A stretch of 38,006 nucleotides of DNA from Fusobacteriaceae bacterium (GTDB taxonomy: Bacteria > Fusobacteriota > Fusobacteriia > Fusobacteriales > Fusobacteriaceae). Positions 27,358 to 36,631 of this stretch are shown piece by piece. The position numbers and the translations under genes were made by a program. Numbering within the stretch: position 1 is the stretch's first letter; each line of letters starts with the position of its first letter. The DNA is taken from NCBI GenBank assembly GCA_031272775.1, contig JAISTB010000022.1, forward strand, positions 1 through 38,006, in the 5' to 3' direction. Below the pieces are notes generated by a model. That model had not been told where the DNA came from. It searched no databases and saw only the letters and a list, made by a program, of their open reading frames with translations.

Positions 27358-28485
27358 TTACTTATAGTTTTTGATCCTCGCGACGGCCTCTTTGAGCCGC
27401 TCGACGCCTACGGTCAGCGACAGGCGGAAATATCCCTCGGATCCGAAGGCCTTTCCGGGCACCACCGCCACCTGGACCTGTTTCAGCAGATCGATCGCGA
27501 AATCCAGCGAATCTTTTCCGGACAGGTTTTCGTAATTGACGAAGAGGTAGAAGGCCCCCTCGCAGGGCACGACCTTGTAGCCCAGTTCCGTCAGGGCGGC
27601 CGTCATGTAGTCCACGCGCTTTTTGTACTCGGCCGCGAGCCAGGCGAGGTCGTCAAACTTCGTCAGGGCGATTTTCGCGGCTTCGAGGGAAATGGCGGCG
27701 GGGCTCCCCACCGTGAAGCCGGAGTTGTTGAGAAAATAGGGATAGAGTTCCTTGGGGCCGATCGTGTAGCCCATCCGCCAGCCGGTCATGGAGTGGGACT
27801 TGGAAAAGCCGTTGGTGATGATGAGCTTGTCCGCCACCTGCGGAAAGGCTCCGAAGGAAACGTAGTCCGTGTAGACGATCCGGTTGTAGATTTCGTCGGC
27901 CAGGATGAAGACGTCCTTGTCGGCGAGGTAATCGCAGATCGCTGAAATCTCTTCTCTGGACATCACGACGCCCGTGGGGTTGCAGGGATTGCAGAAGATG
28001 ACGGCCTTGGTCTTTTCGGTCATGGCCGCGGCGAGCAGCTCCGGCGTGATCTTGAATCCTGTCTTGGAGATATCCACGATCACGGGTTTCGCGAAGGACA
28101 TTTCCACCAGCGGCACATGGGCCGGGTAATAGGGCGCGAAGATGATAACTTCATCGCCCGGGTCAAGGATCGTCCGGACGGCGCAGGCAAGCGCTTCCGA
28201 GGACCCCGTATTCATGATGACGTTATCCCCCGTGTAGGCGGTCCCGAAATGCTTGTTGTAGGTTTCGGCCACCAATTTCCGGATTTCCATGCCGCCCCCG
28301 CTCGGCGGATATCCAAAATGGCCGCGCTCCACGAGTTTGACCGCTTCCATGACCAGTTCCCGCGGCGTGGCGATATCCGGGTCCCCGATCGTGAGGTTGA
28401 TGACGTCCTTGTAGTTGAGGCTTTCCTCAAAGATCTTCCGGATCAATGAGCGTTGCAGGTTTTGAATGGCGCTTGAGATTTTCAT
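27358..28485 (-). CDS. class I aminotransferase, probable N-acetyl-LL-diaminopimelate aminotransferase
   Basis: A 375-residue fold-type I PLP aminotransferase. NPCNPTG (166-172), LADEIYNRI and the lysine motif GFSKSHSMTGWRMG, with Lys229 forming the Schiff base, are all present, as is the tyrosine in the FAPYYP segment. Placement directly after dapH argues for the PatA role: transamination of N-acetyl-2-amino-6-oxopimelate with glutamate. By sequence alone, aspartate aminotransferase is also possible. It begins 36 bp after dapH. Confidence 0.88.
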   Translation of the reverse strand: MKISSAIQNLQRSLIRKIFEESLNYKDVINLTIGDPDIATPRELVMEAVKLVERGHFGYPPSGGGMEIRKLVAETYNKHFGTAYTGDNVIMNTGSSEALACAVRTILDPGDEVIIFAPYYPAHVPLVEMSFAKPVIVDISKTGFKITPELLAAAMTEKTKAVIFCNPCNPTGVVMSREEISAICDYLADKDVFILADEIYNRIVYTDYVSFGAFPQVADKLIITNGFSKSHSMTGWRMGYTIGPKELYPYFLNNSGFTVGSPAAISLEAAKIALTKFDDLAWLAAEYKKRVDYMTAALTELGYKVVPCEGAFYLFVNYENLSGKDSLDFAIDLLKQVQVAVVPGKAFGSEGYFRLSLTVGVERLKEAVARIKNYK

Positions 28486-28521: not shown

Positions 28522-29232
28522 TTACGAATTGCCGCGCAGGTCCTCGACGAGTTCCGTTTTGTCCTTGGTTTTCTGGTCCACGTCCTTGATGATTTTCGCG
28601 GGATTGCCGCCCACGACGGCCCCCGCGGGCACGTCTTCGAGCACGATGGCCCCCGCGCCTACGACCGCTCCTTCGCCGATCGACACCCCTTCGATGACGA
28701 CGGCGTTGGCGCCGATCAGGACATTGTCCCCCACGGTGACGGGCTTTGCCGACGGCGGTTCCACCACGCCCGCGAGGACTGCCCCCGCGCCGATGTGGCA
28801 ATGCTTGCCGACGATGGCCCGGCCGCCCAGGATGGCGCCCATATCGATCATGGTCCCTTCGCCGATTTCCGCGCCGATATTGATGACGGCCCCCATCATG
28901 ATCACGGCGTTTTTACCGATCGTGACCTTGTCGCGGATTACGGCCCCGGGCTCGATCCGCGCGTCAATGTAGCGCAGATCCAGAGTGGGCACGCCGGAAT
29001 TCCGCCGGTCGTTTTCCAGATAGGATTCCGTGATTTTTTCCTTGTAATCCGTCAAAACCCGGTCGATTTCCGTCGCTTCCCCCGCCAGGAACCAGGATCC
29101 GTCCCCTTTGAAGACTTTTGCGCTCGTCCGGAGCCCCGTCAGGTCACCGGCGATCCAAGCCTTGACCGGCGTCTTCCGGCTGGCGTTTTTGATAAAAGCG
29201 ATGATTTCCTCGGCCGTATTGAGATTTCCCAT
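28522..29232 (-). CDS. dapH: 2,3,4,5-tetrahydropyridine-2,6-dicarboxylate N-acetyltransferase
   Basis: A 236-residue acyltransferase that acetylates tetrahydrodipicolinate in the acetylase branch of lysine and DAP synthesis. An N-terminal DapH-specific domain (about 1-85) is followed by a left-handed beta helix of hexapeptide repeats (about 88-220, [20 protein letters not shown] and onward). The [17 protein letters not shown] and [17 protein letters not shown] ending are characteristic. This assigns the organism to the acetyl rather than the succinyl pathway. It lies 72 bp after dapB, the widest gap in the operon. Confidence 0.95.
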
Positions 29233-29304: not shown

Positions 29305-30000
29305 TTAAATGATGTCTTCCATCGTGTAAAAACCGGCTTTTTTTTGGACCAGCAAGCGGGCCGCGGTTATGGCCCCCCGGACAAAGATGGCCTTTGAGGC
29401 CGCCGTATGCTTGAGTTCGATGATTTCGTCGTCCCCGCAGAAATAGACTGCGTGTTCTCCGGCGATGGTCCCGCCCCGAAGGGCGCTGACGCCGATTTCA
29501 TATTTTTCCCGTTTTTTGTTGCCCGCCCGGCCGTTGACTTGCGTGACCGCTTCGGGAATGGCGCTGGCGGCGGCTTCGGCCAGGGTCTTGGCCGTGCCGC
29601 TGGGGGCGTCCAGCTTCTTGTTGTGATGTTTTTCGACGATTTCAATATCGAAGGTCTCGTATAACAAGGGCGTTACGGCCTTGATCATTTTGACGAGAAT
29701 GTTGATCCCGAGGGAGACATTGGACGCCAAAAGAAGCGGAATCTTCCCGCCCGCTTGTTTCATGAGGGCAAGATCCTCCGCCGTATATCCCGTGGTCGCG
29801 ATCAAAAGCGGTATTTTACGCGTCGTCGCGAAGTCAAGGAGCTTCGGTATCCTCGAAAAATGCGAAAAACTGATGATGACGTCTCCGGTCTCGGACGTCA
29901 GCTCGTCGGCAAAGCCCGCGACTTTGAGGTCGCGGCTTTCCTCAAGGGCTTTTTTCAAAAGGCCGGACATGGTTCCGGTGCCGTGGATGATGACTTTCAT
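29305..30000 (-). CDS. dapB: 4-hydroxy-tetrahydrodipicolinate reductase
   Basis: A 231-residue NAD(P)H-dependent reductase acting after DapA. It has a short N-terminal Rossmann motif (IHGTGTMSG), a TTGYTAEDL cofactor loop, and the family signature EKHHNKKLDAPSGTA with the catalytic His and Lys residues. It is somewhat shorter than the 250-270 residue proteobacterial enzymes, as in many Clostridia. Its ATG overlaps the dapA stop by four bases. Confidence 0.95.
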   Translation of the reverse strand: MKVIIHGTGTMSGLLKKALEESRDLKVAGFADELTSETGDVIISFSHFSRIPKLLDFATTRKIPLLIATTGYTAEDLALMKQAGGKIPLLLASNVSLGINILVKMIKAVTPLLYETFDIEIVEKHHNKKLDAPSGTAKTLAEAAASAIPEAVTQVNGRAGNKKREKYEIGVSALRGGTIAGEHAVYFCGDDEIIELKHTAASKAIFVRGAITAARLLVQKKAGFYTMEDII

Positions 30001-30878
30001 AGGCGGATTCCCAACTTTTCCATCAGCGTTTTCAGGATTTCGAGATTTTTTTCCTCGATGGGTCCCAGAGGCGACCGGCCCGGGCCAACATTGAAGCCGA
30101 GGAGATTGAGGGCCGCCTTGACCGGAACGGGATTGACCTCGTAAAAGAGGGCGTTCATCAGCGGCAGATACTTGAGCTGGATCTCCCGGGCCCTGGCGTA
30201 GTCGTTGTTGAGAGCGGCCACAGCCATTTCGTGGGTTTCAAAGGGAATGAGGTTCGCCGATACGGAAATCACTCCTTTGCCGCCCAGGGAAATGACCGGC
30301 AGGACCACGTCGTCGTTGCCCGAGTAAATGTCAAACTTCGGGATTTCCGCGGCGATCTGCGCCGTATAGGACAGATTTCCCGTGGCGTCTTTTACGCCGG
30401 TTATTGTATCGATTTGGGACATTTTTTTCAATAACGGAACAGATAAATTGACGCCGGTCCGCCCGGGCACCGTGTAAATAATAATCGGGATCGAAACGGA
30501 CGCCGCGATGGCCTTGTAATAGCCGTAAATACCGTTGTCGTTTCCTTTGTTGTAATAGGGCGTCACGACCAGTAACGCATCCACGCCGCATTTTTCCGCT
30601 TCTCTGCTGATTTTGACCGCATGTTCGGTGTCGTTGGTGCCCGATCCCGCGATAACGGGGACTTTGCCGCCCACGCGGGCCTTCACGAAGCGCAGGGCCT
30701 CGACTTTTTCCTCGTCGGTGAGCGTCGGACTCTCCCCCGTCGTGCCGTTTATGATAAAGGCGTCGGTTTTGTTTTTCAGGTGAAAATCGACGAGCCTCCC
30801 GTAGACCTCGTAATCGATGTTGTTATTTTTGTCAAAGGGCGTTGCCAGAGCCACGCCGGATCCTGTAAAAATAGCCAT
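29997..30878 (-). CDS. dapA: 4-hydroxy-tetrahydrodipicolinate synthase
   Basis: A 293-residue TIM-barrel aldolase that condenses pyruvate with aspartate semialdehyde. Catalytic residues can be placed: Lys163 in TGVKDATG for the Schiff base, Tyr135 and Arg140 in IIIYTVPGRTG, and Thr46/Thr47 in NGTTGES. It lies 10 bp after asd and is coupled to dapB by an ATGA overlap. Confidence 0.97.
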   Translation of the reverse strand: MAIFTGSGVALATPFDKNNNIDYEVYGRLVDFHLKNKTDAFIINGTTGESPTLTDEEKVEALRFVKARVGGKVPVIAGSGTNDTEHAVKISREAEKCGVDALLVVTPYYNKGNDNGIYGYYKAIAASVSIPIIIYTVPGRTGVNLSVPLLKKMSQIDTITGVKDATGNLSYTAQIAAEIPKFDIYSGNDDVVLPVISLGGKGVISVSANLIPFETHEMAVAALNNDYARAREIQLKYLPLMNALFYEVNPVPVKAALNLLGFNVGPGRSPLGPIEEKNLEILKTLMEKLGIRL

Positions 30879-30888
30879 TTTTCCTCCT

Positions 30889-31872
30889 TTAAGCCTGATG
30901 CGTAAAGAGTTCCGCGATCTGGATCGTGTTGGTGGCCGCCCCTTTGCGGATGTTATCGGCCACGGTCCAGAAATTGACGCTGTTTTTGGCGCTGAAATCC
31001 CGCCGGATCCGGCCTACAAGGACGAGATCCTGACCCGAGGCTTCCGTAGCCAGAGGATATTTGTTTTGCTGCGGATCGTCGACGAGGATAAGGCCCGGGG
31101 CATCCTCAAAGGCCTTTCTGACGTCGGCAAGCTCATAATCACGTTCAAGCTCCGCTGTAATGGAGATGGAATGGGCGTTGACGACCGGAACCCGCACACA
31201 GGTCGCGGTAATCGGGAGATCGGGGATCCCCAGAATTTTTCTCGTCTCGTTGACCATCTTCATTTCCTCTTTCGTATAGCCGTTTTCGAGGAAGACGTCG
31301 ATATGCGGCAGCGCATTATTGACGATCGGATGGGGGAATTTCTGCGGGGGATTTCCTTTAAGCCCCTCTTCGAGGTCGGCGATTCCTTTCATGCCGGCCC
31401 CCGATACCGCCTGGTAGGTATTGTAAATCACGCGTTTCAGGCCGTATTTTTTGTGGAGGACATCCAGCGCTTCCACGCATTGGATCGTGGAGCAGTTGGG
31501 GTTCGCGATAATATTGTGGTTTTTGAAGGCGGCCTCCGGATTGACTTCCGGAACCACCAGAGGAACGCTTTCGTCCATGCGCCAGGCCGATGAGTTGTCG
31601 ACGACAAGGCAGCCCTTTTCGGCGGCGATGGGGGCGAATTTGCGGCTGACGTCGGCGCCCGCCGAGAAGAGGGCGATGTCTATCCCCCGGTCAAAACTTG
31701 TTTCCGTCAGTTCCTCGACGACATAGTCCTTTCCCTGGTAATTGACGGTTTTTCCGGCGCTTTTTTTCGAGGCGAACAAAAAGAGTTCGTCGTAAGGGAA
31801 TTTCCTCTCGGCCAGCACCTTGAGGAACGTGGTCCCCACTAGGCCTGTCGCGCCCGCGATTGCTAATTTCAT
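30889..31872 (-). CDS. asd: aspartate-semialdehyde dehydrogenase
   Basis: A 327-residue NADPH-dependent enzyme that reduces aspartyl phosphate to the semialdehyde. GATGLVG (7-13) binds the cofactor, and NPNCSTIQ carries the catalytic Cys127. The substrate-binding histidine lies in the RVPVVNAHSISI segment. It is 19 bp after lysC and 10 bp before dapA. Confidence 0.97.
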   Translation of the reverse strand: MKLAIAGATGLVGTTFLKVLAERKFPYDELFLFASKKSAGKTVNYQGKDYVVEELTETSFDRGIDIALFSAGADVSRKFAPIAAEKGCLVVDNSSAWRMDESVPLVVPEVNPEAAFKNHNIIANPNCSTIQCVEALDVLHKKYGLKRVIYNTYQAVSGAGMKGIADLEEGLKGNPPQKFPHPIVNNALPHIDVFLENGYTKEEMKMVNETRKILGIPDLPITATCVRVPVVNAHSISITAELERDYELADVRKAFEDAPGLILVDDPQQNKYPLATEASGQDLVLVGRIRRDFSAKNSVNFWTVADNIRKGAATNTIQIAELFTHQA

Positions 31873-31891: not shown

Positions 31892-33097
31892 TTATAAATT
31901 AAAGGCCTTGGCCGTCACCTGGACGGCCTTGTTGAGATTCTCTCTGTCAATGCTGCATGAAATGCTGATTTCGGAGGTCGTGACCTGGTAAAAATTCACG
32001 CCCGCCGCGCTGAGGGCCGAAAAGAACCTGCTCGCTACGCCGGTGCTGTTGGCCATGCCTACGCCCACGACGGAGATCATGCCGAGGTTGTCCGCGAAGG
32101 AGACCGTGGCCCGGGGCAGGTCTTTTTTGAGCTTTTCCACGGCCTGGTCCAGGAGATACTTCTCGTTGACGGCCACGCTGAACGAAAGTTCCAGAATATT
32201 GTCCTTGGTGATATTTTGCGTGATCATGTTGATGTTGATCCCCGCTTCCGTCGTGATGTCGAAGATCTTCGCGATCGTCTGGACGGAATAGGCCACGTTG
32301 GAGATGCTCGCGACCAGAATTTCCTTTGTGACGCTGATGCCGGTGATGAGTTTGTCCTCAAGCCCGTATCCTTTTTCCATGATATATGTTCCTCCGCTTT
32401 CACTGAGACTTTTTCCTACGTAAATGATGACCCCGTATTTTTTCCCGATCTCCACGGCCCGCGTTTCCATGACGCCCGCACCCAAAAGGGCCATTTCCAT
32501 CATTTCCTCATAGGAAATGTGGGAAAGGGGTTTGGCGTCGGGGTAAATCCTGGGATCCACGCTGTAGATCCCGTCGACGTCGGTGTAAATCCGGCATTCG
32601 CAGCGCAGGCTGGCGGCCAGGGCCACGGCCGACGTATCGGAACCGCCGCGACCCAGGGTCGTGATGTCCCCCGCTTCGTTTATGCCCTGAAAGCCCGCCA
32701 CCAGGACGACTTTGCCCTCGGCGAGATGGCGCTCAATCTTCTCGACGCCGATATTTTTGATTTTGCTCTTCGTGTGGATGCCGGTCGTTTCCACCTGGGC
32801 CTGATAGCCCGTCAGGGAAATGGCCGGCTGGCCTTTTTCGATCAAGGCGATGGCGAGATAGGCGATGGTCTGCTGTTCGCCGGTGGAGAGCAGCGAGTCC
32901 AGTTCGCGCTGGTCGGGAACCGGGGAAAATTCTTTGGCGCGAGCGATGAGCTCGTCCGTGGTTTTCCCCATGGCCGAGGCCACCACGACAATTTCGTCAC
33001 TGCTTTCTTTCTTGAGACGGATGATGTACTCCGCGATGCTTTTGATTTTCTCCGGCGTGGCGACGCTAGTCCCGCCGTACTTCAAGACTACTCTCAT
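31892..33097 (-). CDS. lysC: aspartate kinase
   Basis: A 401-residue kinase catalysing the first step of the aspartate family pathway. The N-terminal KYGGTSVATPEKI (6-18) binds ATP and aspartate, and GRGGSDTSAVALA and the YTDVDGIYSVDPR block complete the kinase domain. Two ACT domains in the C-terminal third (including IDITTEAGINI-type sequence, and VGVGMANSTGVASRFF) imply allosteric feedback. There is no homoserine dehydrogenase fusion. GGAGG lies four bases from the ATG. A lysine riboswitch in the leader suggests the lysine-responsive isozyme. Confidence 0.97.
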   Translation of the reverse strand: MRVVLKYGGTSVATPEKIKSIAEYIIRLKKESSDEIVVVASAMGKTTDELIARAKEFSPVPDQRELDSLLSTGEQQTIAYLAIALIEKGQPAISLTGYQAQVETTGIHTKSKIKNIGVEKIERHLAEGKVVLVAGFQGINEAGDITTLGRGGSDTSAVALAASLRCECRIYTDVDGIYSVDPRIYPDAKPLSHISYEEMMEMALLGAGVMETRAVEIGKKYGVIIYVGKSLSESGGTYIMEKGYGLEDKLITGISVTKEILVASISNVAYSVQTIAKIFDITTEAGININMITQNITKDNILELSFSVAVNEKYLLDQAVEKLKKDLPRATVSFADNLGMISVVGVGMANSTGVASRFFSALSAAGVNFYQVTTSEISISCSIDRENLNKAVQVTAKAFNL

Positions 33098-33147
33098 GGA
33101 TCCTCCGTTTTTTGACAGGCCCCGGTCGGTTTTTTCCTATTTGTAAC

Positions 33148-33172
33148 AAAAAACCGGCCCACTTTCCGCCGG
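33148..33172 (-). terminator. riboswitch-controlled intrinsic terminator before lysC
   Basis: On the minus strand CCGGC (33172-33168) pairs with GCCGG (33158-33154) and six T follow (33153-33148). It is 48 bp after the lysine aptamer and 50 bp before lysC. A second possible helix further downstream pairs the T run with an A run at 33129-33136, overlapping this hairpin. Confidence 0.78.
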
Positions 33173-33220
33173 TAGTCAATCATAATCAAAACAAGTTGAT
33201 TTTTGAGCATAATATTCACC

Positions 33221-33393
33221 ACAGAAAGCGCAACATTGAGGAGCCTCAATGACAGTGACGCGGATATTGTCCGCATCCCCAATTCCGAAGCCGGATCAGG
33301 CCCCGCAATTTCGGCAACTCTCCCTTTTTCGCCCCTTCTCCGCCCTGATCCGGGCTCCCGGTGGATACTCTTTAGAATTGCACCTCAGTCTGT
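33221..33393 (-). promoter_or_regulatory. lysine riboswitch (L box)
   Basis: The minus strand carries the conserved L-box elements in order: a P1 arm ACAGA (33393-33389), GAGGTGC (33386-33380), AGAGTAT (33371-33365), GGGAGAGTTGCCGAA (33324-33310), several hairpin arms and a closing TCTGT (33225-33221). The same motifs occur in the Bacillus lysC leader. Length, about 173 nt, is normal for the lysine aptamer. It lies between a promoter and a terminator upstream of lysC. Lysine binding should favour termination and shut off the operon. Confidence 0.92.
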
Positions 33394-33403
33394 TTTCGAT
33401 TGT

Positions 33404-33414
33404 ATTATATTATA
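33404..33414 (-). promoter_or_regulatory. -10 region of the lysine operon promoter
   Basis: Two overlapping TATAAT hexamers on the minus strand (33414-33409 and 33409-33404). The -35 match is poor. Transcription would start near 33397, just before the riboswitch P1 arm. Confidence 0.6.
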
Positions 33415-33530: not shown

Positions 33531-33559
33531 TTTACATAAGGGGAAAAATCCGCTATAAT
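33531..33559 (+). promoter_or_regulatory. promoter of the YdcF/AmmeMemoRadiSam operon
   Basis: TTTACA (33531-33536), 17 bp, consensus TATAAT (33554-33559), about 60 bp upstream of the first gene. The stretch between here and the lysine promoter (33415-33530) is AT-rich and shows nothing else. Confidence 0.8.
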
Positions 33560-33620: not shown

Positions 33621-34385
33621 ATGTACAGATACCGGCAAAAAACTCCCGGCAAATTTTCCTTCTTCATCGGCGTCCTCCTGATCATTTGGGCGGTGATCAT
33701 CCAGCTCAATTCCAATTTCAATATCGGTTACCCCATGATGATGGCCCTGGGTCTCGTCATCATGGCCTGGGGGCGCTTACGGGCGCGTCTTCCCCTTGCG
33801 GTCCGGCTTCCGGTCTATGCGGCGGGGGCCCTGGCGCTGGGCGCCATGCTCTTCTTGTTTCTCTACGGGAAAAAAGACACGGCGGATTTCCATGAAAAGG
33901 CCCTGATCGTCCTCGGGGCGGGGATCCGGGGAGACAAGCCCTCCCGCAACCTCCTGGGGCGGCTCGATTGCGCCCTTTCCTACCTCGAACGGAACCCCGG
34001 CGCCGTCGTCATTGTCTCGGGCGGGCAGGGCGAAGACGAGGACTATACGGAAGCCGAAATCATGAAGCGTTGGCTCGTGAATCACGGCGTCGCCGAAGAC
34101 CGCGTTTATAAAGAAGAGCGGGCCGCAAGCACCGCGGAGAATTTCCGCTATTCCAAAGAAATCCTTGACAATCTTTATCCGGAATCATGGACGGCTGCCT
34201 TTGTGACCTCCGAATACCATATGTTCCGTTCGGCCCAAATCGCCGGGAGACAGGGCATTACCGTCAGCCGTTACGGCGCGCCCCTTGCCTGGTATCTCTA
34301 TCCGGCCGCCTATTTACGAGAAACCCTTGCCTGTGCGTATAGCTTGATTTTCAAAAAGAAATCCGTGACCGCAAAGGACGAATGA
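33621..34385 (+). CDS. YdcF/SanA-family DUF218 membrane protein
   Basis: A 254-residue protein with two or three membrane helices in the first 85 residues, then a DUF218 domain (about 90-230). The domain shows ALIVLGAGIRGDKPS, VVIVSGGQGEDEDYTEAEIM, EERAASTAENFRYSKEIL and VTSEYHMFRS, the pattern of YdcF, SanA and ElyC proteins linked to envelope functions. The exact reaction of this family is unclear. It is first in the operon, 36 bp before the AmmeMemoRadiSam gene. The ATG has AAAGGCGG upstream. Confidence 0.88.
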   Translation: MYRYRQKTPGKFSFFIGVLLIIWAVIIQLNSNFNIGYPMMMALGLVIMAWGRLRARLPLAVRLPVYAAGALALGAMLFLFLYGKKDTADFHEKALIVLGAGIRGDKPSRNLLGRLDCALSYLERNPGAVVIVSGGQGEDEDYTEAEIMKRWLVNHGVAEDRVYKEERAASTAENFRYSKEILDNLYPESWTAAFVTSEYHMFRSAQIAGRQGITVSRYGAPLAWYLYPAAYLRETLACAYSLIFKKKSVTAKDE

Positions 34386-34421: not shown

Positions 34422-35807
34422 ATGTCAGTAGCAGGCGCAATTGCCGTACCCCATCCCCCGCTGATCCTGCCGCAGGTGGGCCGCGGGGAGGAAAAGAAAA
34501 TTCAAAAGACCATTGACGGGTACCGGGAAGCGGCGGCCATGGTCGCCCGCTGGCAGCCCGAAACCATCGTCCTCGTGTCGCCCCACACGACGATCTACGC
34601 CGATTACATTCACCTCTCGCCGGGCCCGGGCGCCTCGGGAGATCTGCGTCAGTTCGGCGTCAGGGACTACGCCTTGCGTGTGGATTACGACGAAAAATTT
34701 GTGGACGCCCTGTCGGTACTCTGCAAGGACAAAGGCATTCCCGCGGGGACCATGGGCGAGCGGGAACCCGCCCTCGATTACGCGACCATGATTCCTCTGG
34801 AGTTTGTCAATGAAAAATACCGGACCTACAAGCTTGTTCGGGCCGGATTTGCGTATCTCACGCCGGTTGAGCACTACCGCTTCGGGAAAATGATCGCGGC
34901 CGCGGCGGCCCTTTTGGGGAGGCGTATTGTCTTCATCGCCAGCGGCGATCTTTCTCACAAGCTCAAAGCCGACGGCCCCTACGGCTTTGCCCCGGAAGGG
35001 CCCGACTTTGACCGGCAGGTCACGGAAGCCATGGCCAAAGGGGATTTTCTGAAATTCCTGACCTTCCCCGACAATTTCTGCGAAAAGGCGGCCGAATGCG
35101 GCTTGCGCGCATTCCAGATCATGGCCGGCGTCCTGGACGGACTGGCCGTCCAATCGAAACTGCTTTCCTATGAAGGACCCTTCGGCGTAGGCTACGGCGT
35201 CGCGGCATTTTCCGTGACGGGAACGGATCCCGCCCGGGCCTTTGACCGGACTGCCGCGGAAAGGGAACAAAAATCCGTCGACGAAGCCAAAAGCGGTGAG
35301 GACGCCTATGTGAAGCTGGCGCGGCTCAGTCTCGAGACCTATGTGAAGACCGGAAAGCAGGCGGCCCTTCCCGAGGGGCTCCCCCCCGAAATGACCGGAA
35401 AACGCGCCGGGGCCTTTGTGTCCATCAAGAAAAACGGCCGGCTCCGGGGTTGCATCGGTACCATCGGGCCCGTCCGAGAATCCGTCGCGGCGGAAATATT
35501 GCGGAACGCCGTTTCCGCAGGGCAGGAAGACCCGCGCTTTTCCCCGGTTGAGGAAAAAGAACTGCCGAGTCTTGTCTACAGCGTCGACGTGCTGGGGGAA
35601 ACGGAACCTGTGGCGGACAAGAGCGCCCTTGACGTCAAACGCTACGGCGTCATCGTCACGAGCGGCGGCAGGCGGGGTCTGCTTCTTCCGAATCTGGAGG
35701 GTATCGACGACGTAGATACCCAGATTTCCATCGCCCGGCAGAAGGCGGGCATAGGGCCCTCGGAGCCCGTCACCCTCGAGCGCTTCGAGGTGATCCGGCA
35801 CAAATGA
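34422..35807 (+). CDS. amrA: AmmeMemoRadiSam system fused protein (LigB/MEMO-like plus AMMECR1)
   Basis: A 461-residue two-domain protein. Residues 1-265 resemble class III extradiol dioxygenase subunit B and MEMO proteins, with metal-site candidates His11 (VPHPPLIL), His55 (VSPHTTIY) and the SGDLSHKL segment near 175-182. Residues 285-461 form an AMMECR1 domain with the hallmark RLRGCIGTIGP (about 339-349). This domain pair and an adjacent radical SAM gene define the AmmeMemoRadiSam system named by comparative genomics, whose reaction is not well established. Its stop overlaps the radical SAM start by four bases. An antisense frame of almost equal length is a shadow. Confidence 0.92.
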   Translation: MSVAGAIAVPHPPLILPQVGRGEEKKIQKTIDGYREAAAMVARWQPETIVLVSPHTTIYADYIHLSPGPGASGDLRQFGVRDYALRVDYDEKFVDALSVLCKDKGIPAGTMGEREPALDYATMIPLEFVNEKYRTYKLVRAGFAYLTPVEHYRFGKMIAAAAALLGRRIVFIASGDLSHKLKADGPYGFAPEGPDFDRQVTEAMAKGDFLKFLTFPDNFCEKAAECGLRAFQIMAGVLDGLAVQSKLLSYEGPFGVGYGVAAFSVTGTDPARAFDRTAAEREQKSVDEAKSGEDAYVKLARLSLETYVKTGKQAALPEGLPPEMTGKRAGAFVSIKKNGRLRGCIGTIGPVRESVAAEILRNAVSAGQEDPRFSPVEEKELPSLVYSVDVLGETEPVADKSALDVKRYGVIVTSGGRRGLLLPNLEGIDDVDTQISIARQKAGIGPSEPVTLERFEVIRHK

Positions 35808-36631
35808 AGACCCTCTGTACCCTCTGCCCCAGGCGTTGCGAGCTCAACCGGGATCAGCGCGGCTTTTGCAGGGCCCGGATCAATCGCGGCGGGCAGATCG
35901 TCTCCGAAAATTACGGCAGACTCACGGCCATCGCCCTCGATCCCATCGAAAAAAAGCCCCTGTACCATTTTTACCCGGGCAATAAAATCCTGTCGGTCGG
36001 GAGTTACGGCTGCAACCTGCGCTGTCCCTTCTGCCAGAACCACGATATCGCCCAAGTCGGGGAAGACGCCGTTCCCTGGCGCTTTGTGAGTCCCGATGAA
36101 TTGGTCGGAAAGGCCATGGAGCTCATCCCCGCGGGGAATATCGGGATCGCGTATACCTATAACGAGCCGCTGATTTCCGCCGAATATGTCCTTGACTGCG
36201 CCAAGGCGGCCCGCCGGTATCATCTGAAAAACGTCCTCGTCACAAACGGGACGGCGTCAGAAGCGACCCTGGAAGCGCTTTTGCCGTGGATAGACGCCAT
36301 GAATATCGATCTCAAGGGCTTCAGCCAGGAATTTTACGACAAGGTCGGCGGGGATTTTGAGACCGTCAGGCAAACGATCCGGAAGGCCCGTGGCAGGACC
36401 CATATTGAGCTGACGAAACTCGTCGTGCCCGGCATGAATGATACCGAAGAGGACACGGAAGCCATGGCCAAATGGATCGCGGCGCTGGATCCGGGGATCC
36501 CCCTCCATGTGAGCCGGTTTTTTCCCCGCTACCGGATGTCGGATCTCGCTCCGACGCCCATAGCCACCGTCAGGCGGATGGCGGACGTCGCGAAAAAATA
36601 TCTGAAAAATGTCTATGTGGGAAATTGTTGA
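35804..36631 (+). CDS. amrS: AmmeMemoRadiSam system radical SAM enzyme
   Basis: A 275-residue radical SAM protein related to pyruvate formate-lyase activating enzymes. The [4Fe-4S] motif is CNLRCPFC (Cys70, Cys74, Cys77). An N-terminal cysteine cluster (Cys5, Cys8, Cys12, Cys22) is characteristic of this family. The SAM-binding stretch IAYTYNEPLI and the NIDLKGFSQEFY block follow. Translational coupling to the fused AMMECR1 gene (ATGA overlap) supports a shared function, perhaps modifying that protein or a common substrate. It is the last gene before a strong terminator. Confidence 0.93.
   Translation: MKTLCTLCPRRCELNRDQRGFCRARINRGGQIVSENYGRLTAIALDPIEKKPLYHFYPGNKILSVGSYGCNLRCPFCQNHDIAQVGEDAVPWRFVSPDELVGKAMELIPAGNIGIAYTYNEPLISAEYVLDCAKAARRYHLKNVLVTNGTASEATLEALLPWIDAMNIDLKGFSQEFYDKVGGDFETVRQTIRKARGRTHIELTKLVVPGMNDTEEDTEAMAKWIAALDPGIPLHVSRFFPRYRMSDLAPTPIATVRRMADVAKKYLKNVYVGNC

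What the first reader, a model, noticed from the sequence alone, without database searches (positions are those of the whole stretch)
33148..33414. Complete lysine riboswitch with terminator controlling the DAP/lysine operon
Promoter, aptamer motifs, terminator and lysC follow in order. A second possible helix downstream of the terminator pairs its T run with an A run, which may form part of the switching mechanism.
Basis: partly seen in the sequence, partly recalled or inferred. Interest (0 to 1): 0.5.

Follow-up and report, generated by a model that had tools for sequence, protein, structure and literature searches.

The report
Lysine riboswitch ahead of lysine operon
This is an ordinary lysine-sensing RNA switch that most likely stops a bacterium of the Fusobacteriaceae from making its lysine-synthesis enzymes when lysine is plentiful; a small oddity in one of its stems is shared with some relatives.

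Summary
The finding is right in its main point. A lysine riboswitch aptamer (Rfam RF00168, 91.2 bits against a cut-off of 30, E 6.2e-23) lies on the minus strand at 33396-33218. It sits between a TATAAT box and an intrinsic terminator (33173-33148); lysC, asd, dapA, dapB, dapD and an aminotransferase gene follow. This is the usual lysine OFF switch by transcription termination. The T-run/A-run helix offered as a possible switching part exists as a 9-bp match, but is near chance level, lies past the termination point, and has no counterpart above 6 bp in 11 of 11 other leaders of this P1 type. One detail is unusual: P1 has two neighbouring pyrimidine mismatches beside the junction, shared by 6 lysC leaders and none of 73 other parsed Fusobacteriales aptamers; U.U at that place also occurs in four Bacillaceae lysC leaders. 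Lysine riboswitches in Fusobacteria are published. A new member of a known kind; low interest.

The parts
33404..33414 (-). promoter -10 region, two overlapping TATAAT boxes (33414-33409 and 33409-33404), the first preceded by TG (extended -10)
   Evidence: Read from sequence; not listed by the consensus scan, so inferred
33218..33396 (-). lysine riboswitch aptamer (RF00168), five-helix junction
   Evidence: cmscan 91.2 bits, E 6.2e-23, model 1-182 of 182
33386..33393 (-). P1 5' strand; U33387 and C33388 face U33227 and U33226 as mismatches
   Evidence: cmscan alignment; P1 table
33221..33228 (-). P1 3' strand, also part of the antiterminator
33218..33230 (-). antiterminator left side, CGCUUUCUGUGGU
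   Evidence: duplex -18.1 kcal/mol with the terminator 5' arm and loop, shuffle p 0.008 and 0.005
33160..33173 (-). antiterminator right side = terminator 5' arm and most of its loop, ACCGGCGGAAAGUG, one bulged G
   Evidence: pair list checked
33179..33213 (-). linker hairpin present in both predicted states
   Evidence: constrained folds
33148..33173 (-). intrinsic terminator hairpin and T6 run
   Evidence: a terminator at a similar distance in 12 of 12 lysC leaders
33127..33156 (-).
   Evidence: p 0.16 by energy, 0.054 by match length; only 3-6 bp in 11 of 11 orthologs
31892..33097 (-). lysC, aspartate kinase, 401 aa, preceded by GGAGG
   Evidence: NCBIfam NF005154 445 bits over its cut-off 376
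30889..31872 (-). asd, aspartate-semialdehyde dehydrogenase
   Evidence: TIGR01296 over cut-off
29997..30878 (-). dapA
   Evidence: TIGR00674 over cut-off
29305..30000 (-). dapB
   Evidence: TIGR00036 over cut-off
28522..29232 (-). dapD, tetrahydrodipicolinate N-acetyltransferase
   Evidence: TIGR03532 over cut-off
27358..28485 (-). PLP aminotransferase, perhaps the N-acetyl-DAP aminotransferase step (inferred)
   Evidence: best NCBIfam hit PRK07683, below its cut-off

Best explanation
A lysine riboswitch that acts by transcription attenuation (an OFF switch). When lysine is scarce, the nascent RNA pairs the P1 3' strand (33230-33218) with the terminator 5' arm and loop (33173-33160); the terminator cannot form and polymerase reads into lysC-asd-dapA-dapB-dapD-aminotransferase. 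When lysine is bound, the aptamer is held and P1 keeps its 3' strand; the terminator hairpin forms and polymerase stops in the T run at 33153-33148. Shown: the aptamer match, the terminator, the mutually exclusive pairings, the gene order, and a terminator in the lysC leaders of relatives. Inferred: lysine binding, the direction of regulation and the size of the effect.
For: RF00168 hit, full model, 91.2 bits. Genes of the DAP/lysine pathway directly downstream. A terminator at a similar distance in 12 of 12 lysC leaders among the 83 aptamers read; in the three same-genus terminators the fourth stem pair reads G-C, G-U and A-U. P1 3' strand x terminator 5' arm+loop: -18.1 kcal/mol in the window, p 0.008, and none of 69 non-cognate arms does as well; over 70 leaders with a terminator 31 reach p<=0.05, against 7 of 70 for the P1 3' strand x terminator 3' arm and 3 of 70 for the P1 5' strand x 5' arm. 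Constrained folding: before the terminator 3' arm is made, the antiterminator is in the minimum-energy fold in 5 of 6 orthologs; in the window all 6 canonically paired P1 3' bases are reused in it. A review says lysine riboswitches have been shown to be OFF switches in B. subtilis and E. coli (PMC11477304, passage seen).
Against: No binding or transcription data. With the terminator 5' arm and only 3 loop bases, the window's antiterminator does not beat shuffles (p 0.38); it needs the loop. With the loop, 6 of the 12 distinct leaders of this P1 type reach p<=0.05 and 6 do not. At p<=0.01 the 70-leader count is 7 against 4 and 0 for the controls, a weak margin. Once the whole terminator is made, the antiterminator state is predicted more stable than the P1+terminator state in 3 of 6 orthologs and less stable in 3. 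P1 has two mismatches beside the junction. The energies leave out the kissing loop and the ligand.
Confidence: 0.93

Rival explanations
1. The downstream T-run/A-run helix is a working part: once the antiterminator frees the terminator 3' arm, the first A run (33135-33127) captures the U run, so that it does not pair with the second A run beside the Shine-Dalgarno sequence.
For: A 9-bp perfect match exists, and the minimum-energy fold of the sequence downstream of the aptamer uses it. It has the lowest energy of the 70 leaders scored, and 3 of the 70 reach p<=0.05, two of them lysC leaders of another genus (L084, L090); L201 reaches p 0.04.
Against: Energy p 0.16 and match-length p 0.054 for the window; 3 of 70 at p<=0.05 is about the number that chance gives; the longest match is 3-6 bp in 11 of 11 orthologs. 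Keeping the first A run single-stranded gave no consistent change in predicted Shine-Dalgarno accessibility: two bases less open, three more open.
Confidence: 0.05
2. Control is mainly at translation initiation or mRNA decay, with the hairpin as a secondary feature.
For: E. coli lysC works on translation and mRNA decay (recalled; the title of such a paper was seen in a reference list).
Against: A terminator with a T6 run ends 50 bases before the start codon, and 12 of 12 lysC leaders read have a terminator. No systematic search for a partner of the Shine-Dalgarno sequence was made.
Confidence: 0.05
3. The aptamer has drifted and no longer responds to lysine, or responds at a shifted threshold, because of the P1 mismatches.
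For: Tandem pyrimidine mismatches beside the junction.
Against: The type occurs in 13 of 96 genomes across 3 genera, and the 12 distinct leaders read head lysC (6 by tblastn; the others by reading the start of the gene). P1 still has 6 canonical pairs in the window. Among alignment columns at least 85% conserved in 73 other aptamers, only three P1 columns differ in the six.
Confidence: 0.1

Closest known systems
Lysine riboswitch / L box (RF00168), lysC leaders with a terminator such as Bacillus subtilis lysC (mechanism recalled)
   Same: Aptamer model matched end to end, P1 strand shared with an antiterminator, terminator, lysine biosynthesis genes downstream
   Different: P1 has U.U and C.U mismatches beside the junction and more pairs on its outer side; the antiterminator runs into the terminator loop
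Lysine riboswitches of Fusobacteria (PMC5584792)
   Same: That paper lists Sebaldella termitidis and Leptotrichia buccalis operons with lysA-lysC and Fusobacterium nucleatum kal under lysine riboswitches (passages seen)
   Different: Gene order here is lysC-asd-dapA-dapB-dapD-aminotransferase; the nearest named relatives are uncultured Fusobacteriaceae

Membership tests
Lysine riboswitch aptamer RF00168 | Covariance match above the curated gathering score | tested here: met
   91.2 bits against 30, full model
Lysine riboswitch aptamer RF00168 | Conserved junction bases | tested here: met
   Alignment; against 73 other Fusobacteriales aptamers the only well-conserved columns that differ are P1 columns 9, 10 and 194
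Lysine riboswitch aptamer RF00168 | P1 helix closing the junction | tested here: met
   6 canonical pairs over 8 positions; the second and third from the junction are U.U and C.U. A departure in detail; the accepted hits L122-L124 and L139 also have U.U at the second
Lysine riboswitch aptamer RF00168 | P2-P3 kissing-loop complementarity | tested here: inconclusive
   GGAUCAGG in the P2 loop and CCUGAUCC in the P3 loop are perfectly complementary in the window; no shuffle control was run
Lysine riboswitch acting by attenuation | Intrinsic terminator downstream | tested here: met
Lysine riboswitch acting by attenuation | Antiterminator exclusive with P1 and terminator | tested here: met
   by sequence and folding only
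Lysine riboswitch acting by attenuation | Lysine pathway gene downstream | tested here: met
Lysine riboswitch acting by attenuation | Lysine binding and lysine-dependent termination | not testable with these tools
   needs in-line probing and in vitro transcription

The most novel reading that the evidence does not exclude
In one Fusobacteriaceae group the lysC riboswitch has kept, across 3 genera, an imperfect P1 with two pyrimidine mismatches beside the binding junction. The 3' strand would be held by its second job, pairing in the antiterminator, so that the switch is biased towards ON and needs more lysine to shut off; some Bacillaceae lysC leaders would have reached a similar state independently.
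Probability: 0.25. Interest if true: 0.3.

Novelty: new member of a known kind. Interest (0 to 1): 0.14.

Why it matters
It gives the control element of the lysine/DAP operon in a little-studied Fusobacteriaceae lineage and a clear case of a P1 strand shared with an antiterminator. If the mismatched P1 does shift the lysine threshold, it would be a natural series for testing how P1 stability sets riboswitch sensitivity.

Tried and rejected
Downstream T-run/A-run helix as part of the switch: rejected on shuffles and on lack of conservation. In one search the T run picked for L197 and L198 was not the terminator's; one search repeats the count with the right run.

Antiterminator test with the terminator arm and 3 loop bases: gave p 0.38 for the window, so it was repeated with the whole loop and with the 12 distinct leaders of this P1 type. 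The repeat was chosen after seeing that the pairing runs into the loop, so the window's p value is flattered; the 70-leader count with its two controls is the fairer test. Within the 12, the two mismatched U bases are both paired in the antiterminator in 5, one in 2, none in 5, so the idea that these bases are kept only for the antiterminator is not general.

P1 mismatches as a unique feature: withdrawn after four Bacillaceae lysC leaders showed U.U at the same place. One search found an aptamer by a text pattern in 33 of the 80 loci; only those four were confirmed with Rfam. One more of the 33, L171, reads A.A there and was not checked.

Rows dropped: 83 of the 118 RF00168 matches listed were read, the other 35 were not. 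P1 could be parsed in 79 of 83 (not L052, L092a, L104a, L112). The 70 leaders are those with a terminator of -7 kcal/mol or better starting within 90 nt, three tandem-array entries being left out by name. One search aligned 79, leaving out L104a, L112, L033 and L036. Of the 14 matches, 12 distinct ones were read; one was identical to another in its core, and the second copy in G079 was not read. The kissing-loop comparison failed for L033 and L036 (empty slice).

Literature: searches; passages of PMC5584792, PMC11477058, PMC3764141, PMC10907184, PMC11477304 and PMC12452182; abstract and outline of PMC5584792. I saw no account of the P1 mismatches in these, but only open-licence papers are held and no search was aimed at mismatches alone.

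Full report
What is there. On the minus strand the order is a TATAAT box (33414-33409, with a second overlapping one at 33409-33404), a lysine aptamer (33396-33218), a linker hairpin, an intrinsic terminator (33173-33148), a GGAGG Shine-Dalgarno sequence and lysC (33097-31892). The aptamer matches Rfam RF00168 over the whole model with 91.2 bits (cut-off 30) and E 6.2e-23; it is the only Rfam match at gathering score in the 38-kb window. lysC is followed on the same strand by asd, dapA, dapB, the N-acetyltransferase form of dapD and an aminotransferase. A simple consensus scan did not list this promoter or terminator, so the promoter rests on reading the sequence; the terminator is supported by folding and by its presence in relatives.

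Host. The named relatives with lysC closest to the window's are two Fusobacteriaceae metagenome-assembled genomes, Md513_bin107 (89% identity) and Pq454_bin26 (80%); Fusobacterium mortiferum has 68%. The window's own genome holds two RF00168 matches, this one and one on contig C5. RF00168 is found in 58 of 61 genomes of a sample from genus, family and order.

How it works. Of the 118 RF00168 matches listed, 83 were read. Twelve of the 83 directly precede lysC; in four others lysC begins about 1.4 kb downstream. All 12 have a terminator whose T run begins 62-75 nt after the aptamer. The same bases cannot be in P1 and in the antiterminator at once: P1 uses 33228-33221 as its 3' strand, while CGCUUUCUGUGGU (33230-33218) can pair with ACCGGCGGAAAGUG (33173-33160), the terminator 5' arm and loop, in 13 pairs with one bulge (pair list). 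The duplex energy is -18.1 kcal/mol, shuffle p 0.008 and 0.005. Over 70 leaders with a terminator, 31 reach p<=0.05 for this pairing, against 7 of 70 and 3 of 70 for two control pairings; at p<=0.01 the counts are 7, 4 and 0. With only 3 loop bases included, the window's value was p 0.38. Folding with constraints puts the antiterminator in the minimum-energy structure, before the terminator 3' arm is made, in 5 of 6 orthologs; with the whole terminator made, the antiterminator state is the more stable in 3 of 6 and the P1+terminator state in 3 of 6. A linker hairpin at 33213-33179 is present in both predicted states of the window's leader; a review describes a hairpin of that behaviour in E. 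coli lysC that favours the antiterminator (PMC10907184, passage seen). I conclude that low lysine allows read-through and high lysine causes termination. Lysine binding and the direction are inferred from the family; a review states that lysine riboswitches have been shown to be OFF switches in B. subtilis and E. coli (PMC11477304, passage seen).

The second helix. CGGTTTTTT (33156-33148) and AAAAAACCG (33135-33127) do match over 9 bp. Against shuffles of the downstream sequence the pairing energy has p 0.16 and the match length p 0.054. Over 70 leaders, 3 reach p<=0.05, about the number expected by chance, two of them lysC leaders of another genus. In 11 of 11 other leaders of this P1 type the longest match is 3-6 bp. 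The A run is also made only after the polymerase has passed the termination point. I regard it as incidental.

An unusual detail. The second and third P1 pairs from the junction are U33387.U33227 and C33388.U33226, both mismatches. The other 73 all have A-U at the second pair, and two of them (L039, L057) have a mismatch at the third. A motif search found this P1 type in 13 of 96 genomes of the order, in 3 of 27 genera, and the 12 distinct leaders read head lysC. The pattern itself demands the mismatched bases, so this count says how far the type spreads, not how fixed it is. Among well-conserved alignment columns only three P1 columns differ in the six. The type is not unique: four Bacillaceae lysC leaders, confirmed as RF00168 at 103-110 bits, have a U.U at the second pair, two of them a second U.U at the third. 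Both mismatched U bases are reused in the antiterminator in 5 of 12 leaders, one in 2 and none in 5, so an explanation through the antiterminator is only partly borne out.

Known or new. Lysine riboswitches before lysine biosynthesis operons in Fusobacteria, and before kal in Fusobacterium nucleatum, are in print (PMC5584792, passages seen). The present case is a further member with a small lineage-specific change in P1.

Noticed in passing
L033:329-470 (own genome, contig C5) and L036:326-468 (same genus): Second lysine riboswitch, only 142-143 nt: read by eye, the C5 copy has P2 and P3 cut down to 4-nt loops that could not form the usual kissing loop, and the same-genus copy is similarly short, yet they score 98.7 and 96.7 bits. 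They head a gene that looks like yfcC (by eye). PMC3764141 (passages) calls the kissing loop essential but also poorly conserved, so these short aptamers may merit a binding test.
   Followed up: partly
L092 (G006:C2:239374-239545 and 239140-239309) and L104 (G013:C170:21-135 and 243-421): Two lysine aptamers in tandem ahead of one gene. PMC12452182 (passage) says that the enrichment of lysine riboswitches in Bacillota is seen mainly for single copies, not contiguous ones.
   Followed up: no
L038, L043, L047, L055, L064, L077, L079, L097, L104: Leaders of a gene that looks like kal (3-aminobutyryl-CoA ammonia lyase, by eye, no family search): one search finds no stable terminator between aptamer and gene, unlike most other leaders; this would fit a different, perhaps ON, mode for a degradation gene, which PMC5584792 states for catabolic genes.
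   Followed up: no
L122, L123, L124, L139 (Ornithinibacillus, Oceanobacillus and Virgibacillus lysC leaders): U.U mismatch in P1 at the same place as in the window; the Staphylococcus and Macrococcus leaders matched have U-A there, where the Fusobacteriales aptamers have A-U.
   Followed up: partly
33531-33559 (+): Sigma-70-like promoter (11 of 12 bases) pointing away from lysC towards the gene at 33621 (weak ElyC match, below cut-off), so the two promoters would be divergent.
   Followed up: no
34422-36631 (+): A gene whose C-terminal part matches AmmeMemoRadiSam system protein A over its cut-off and whose N-terminal part matches a dioxygenase model weakly (below cut-off), followed by the radical SAM enzyme of that system.
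   Followed up: no
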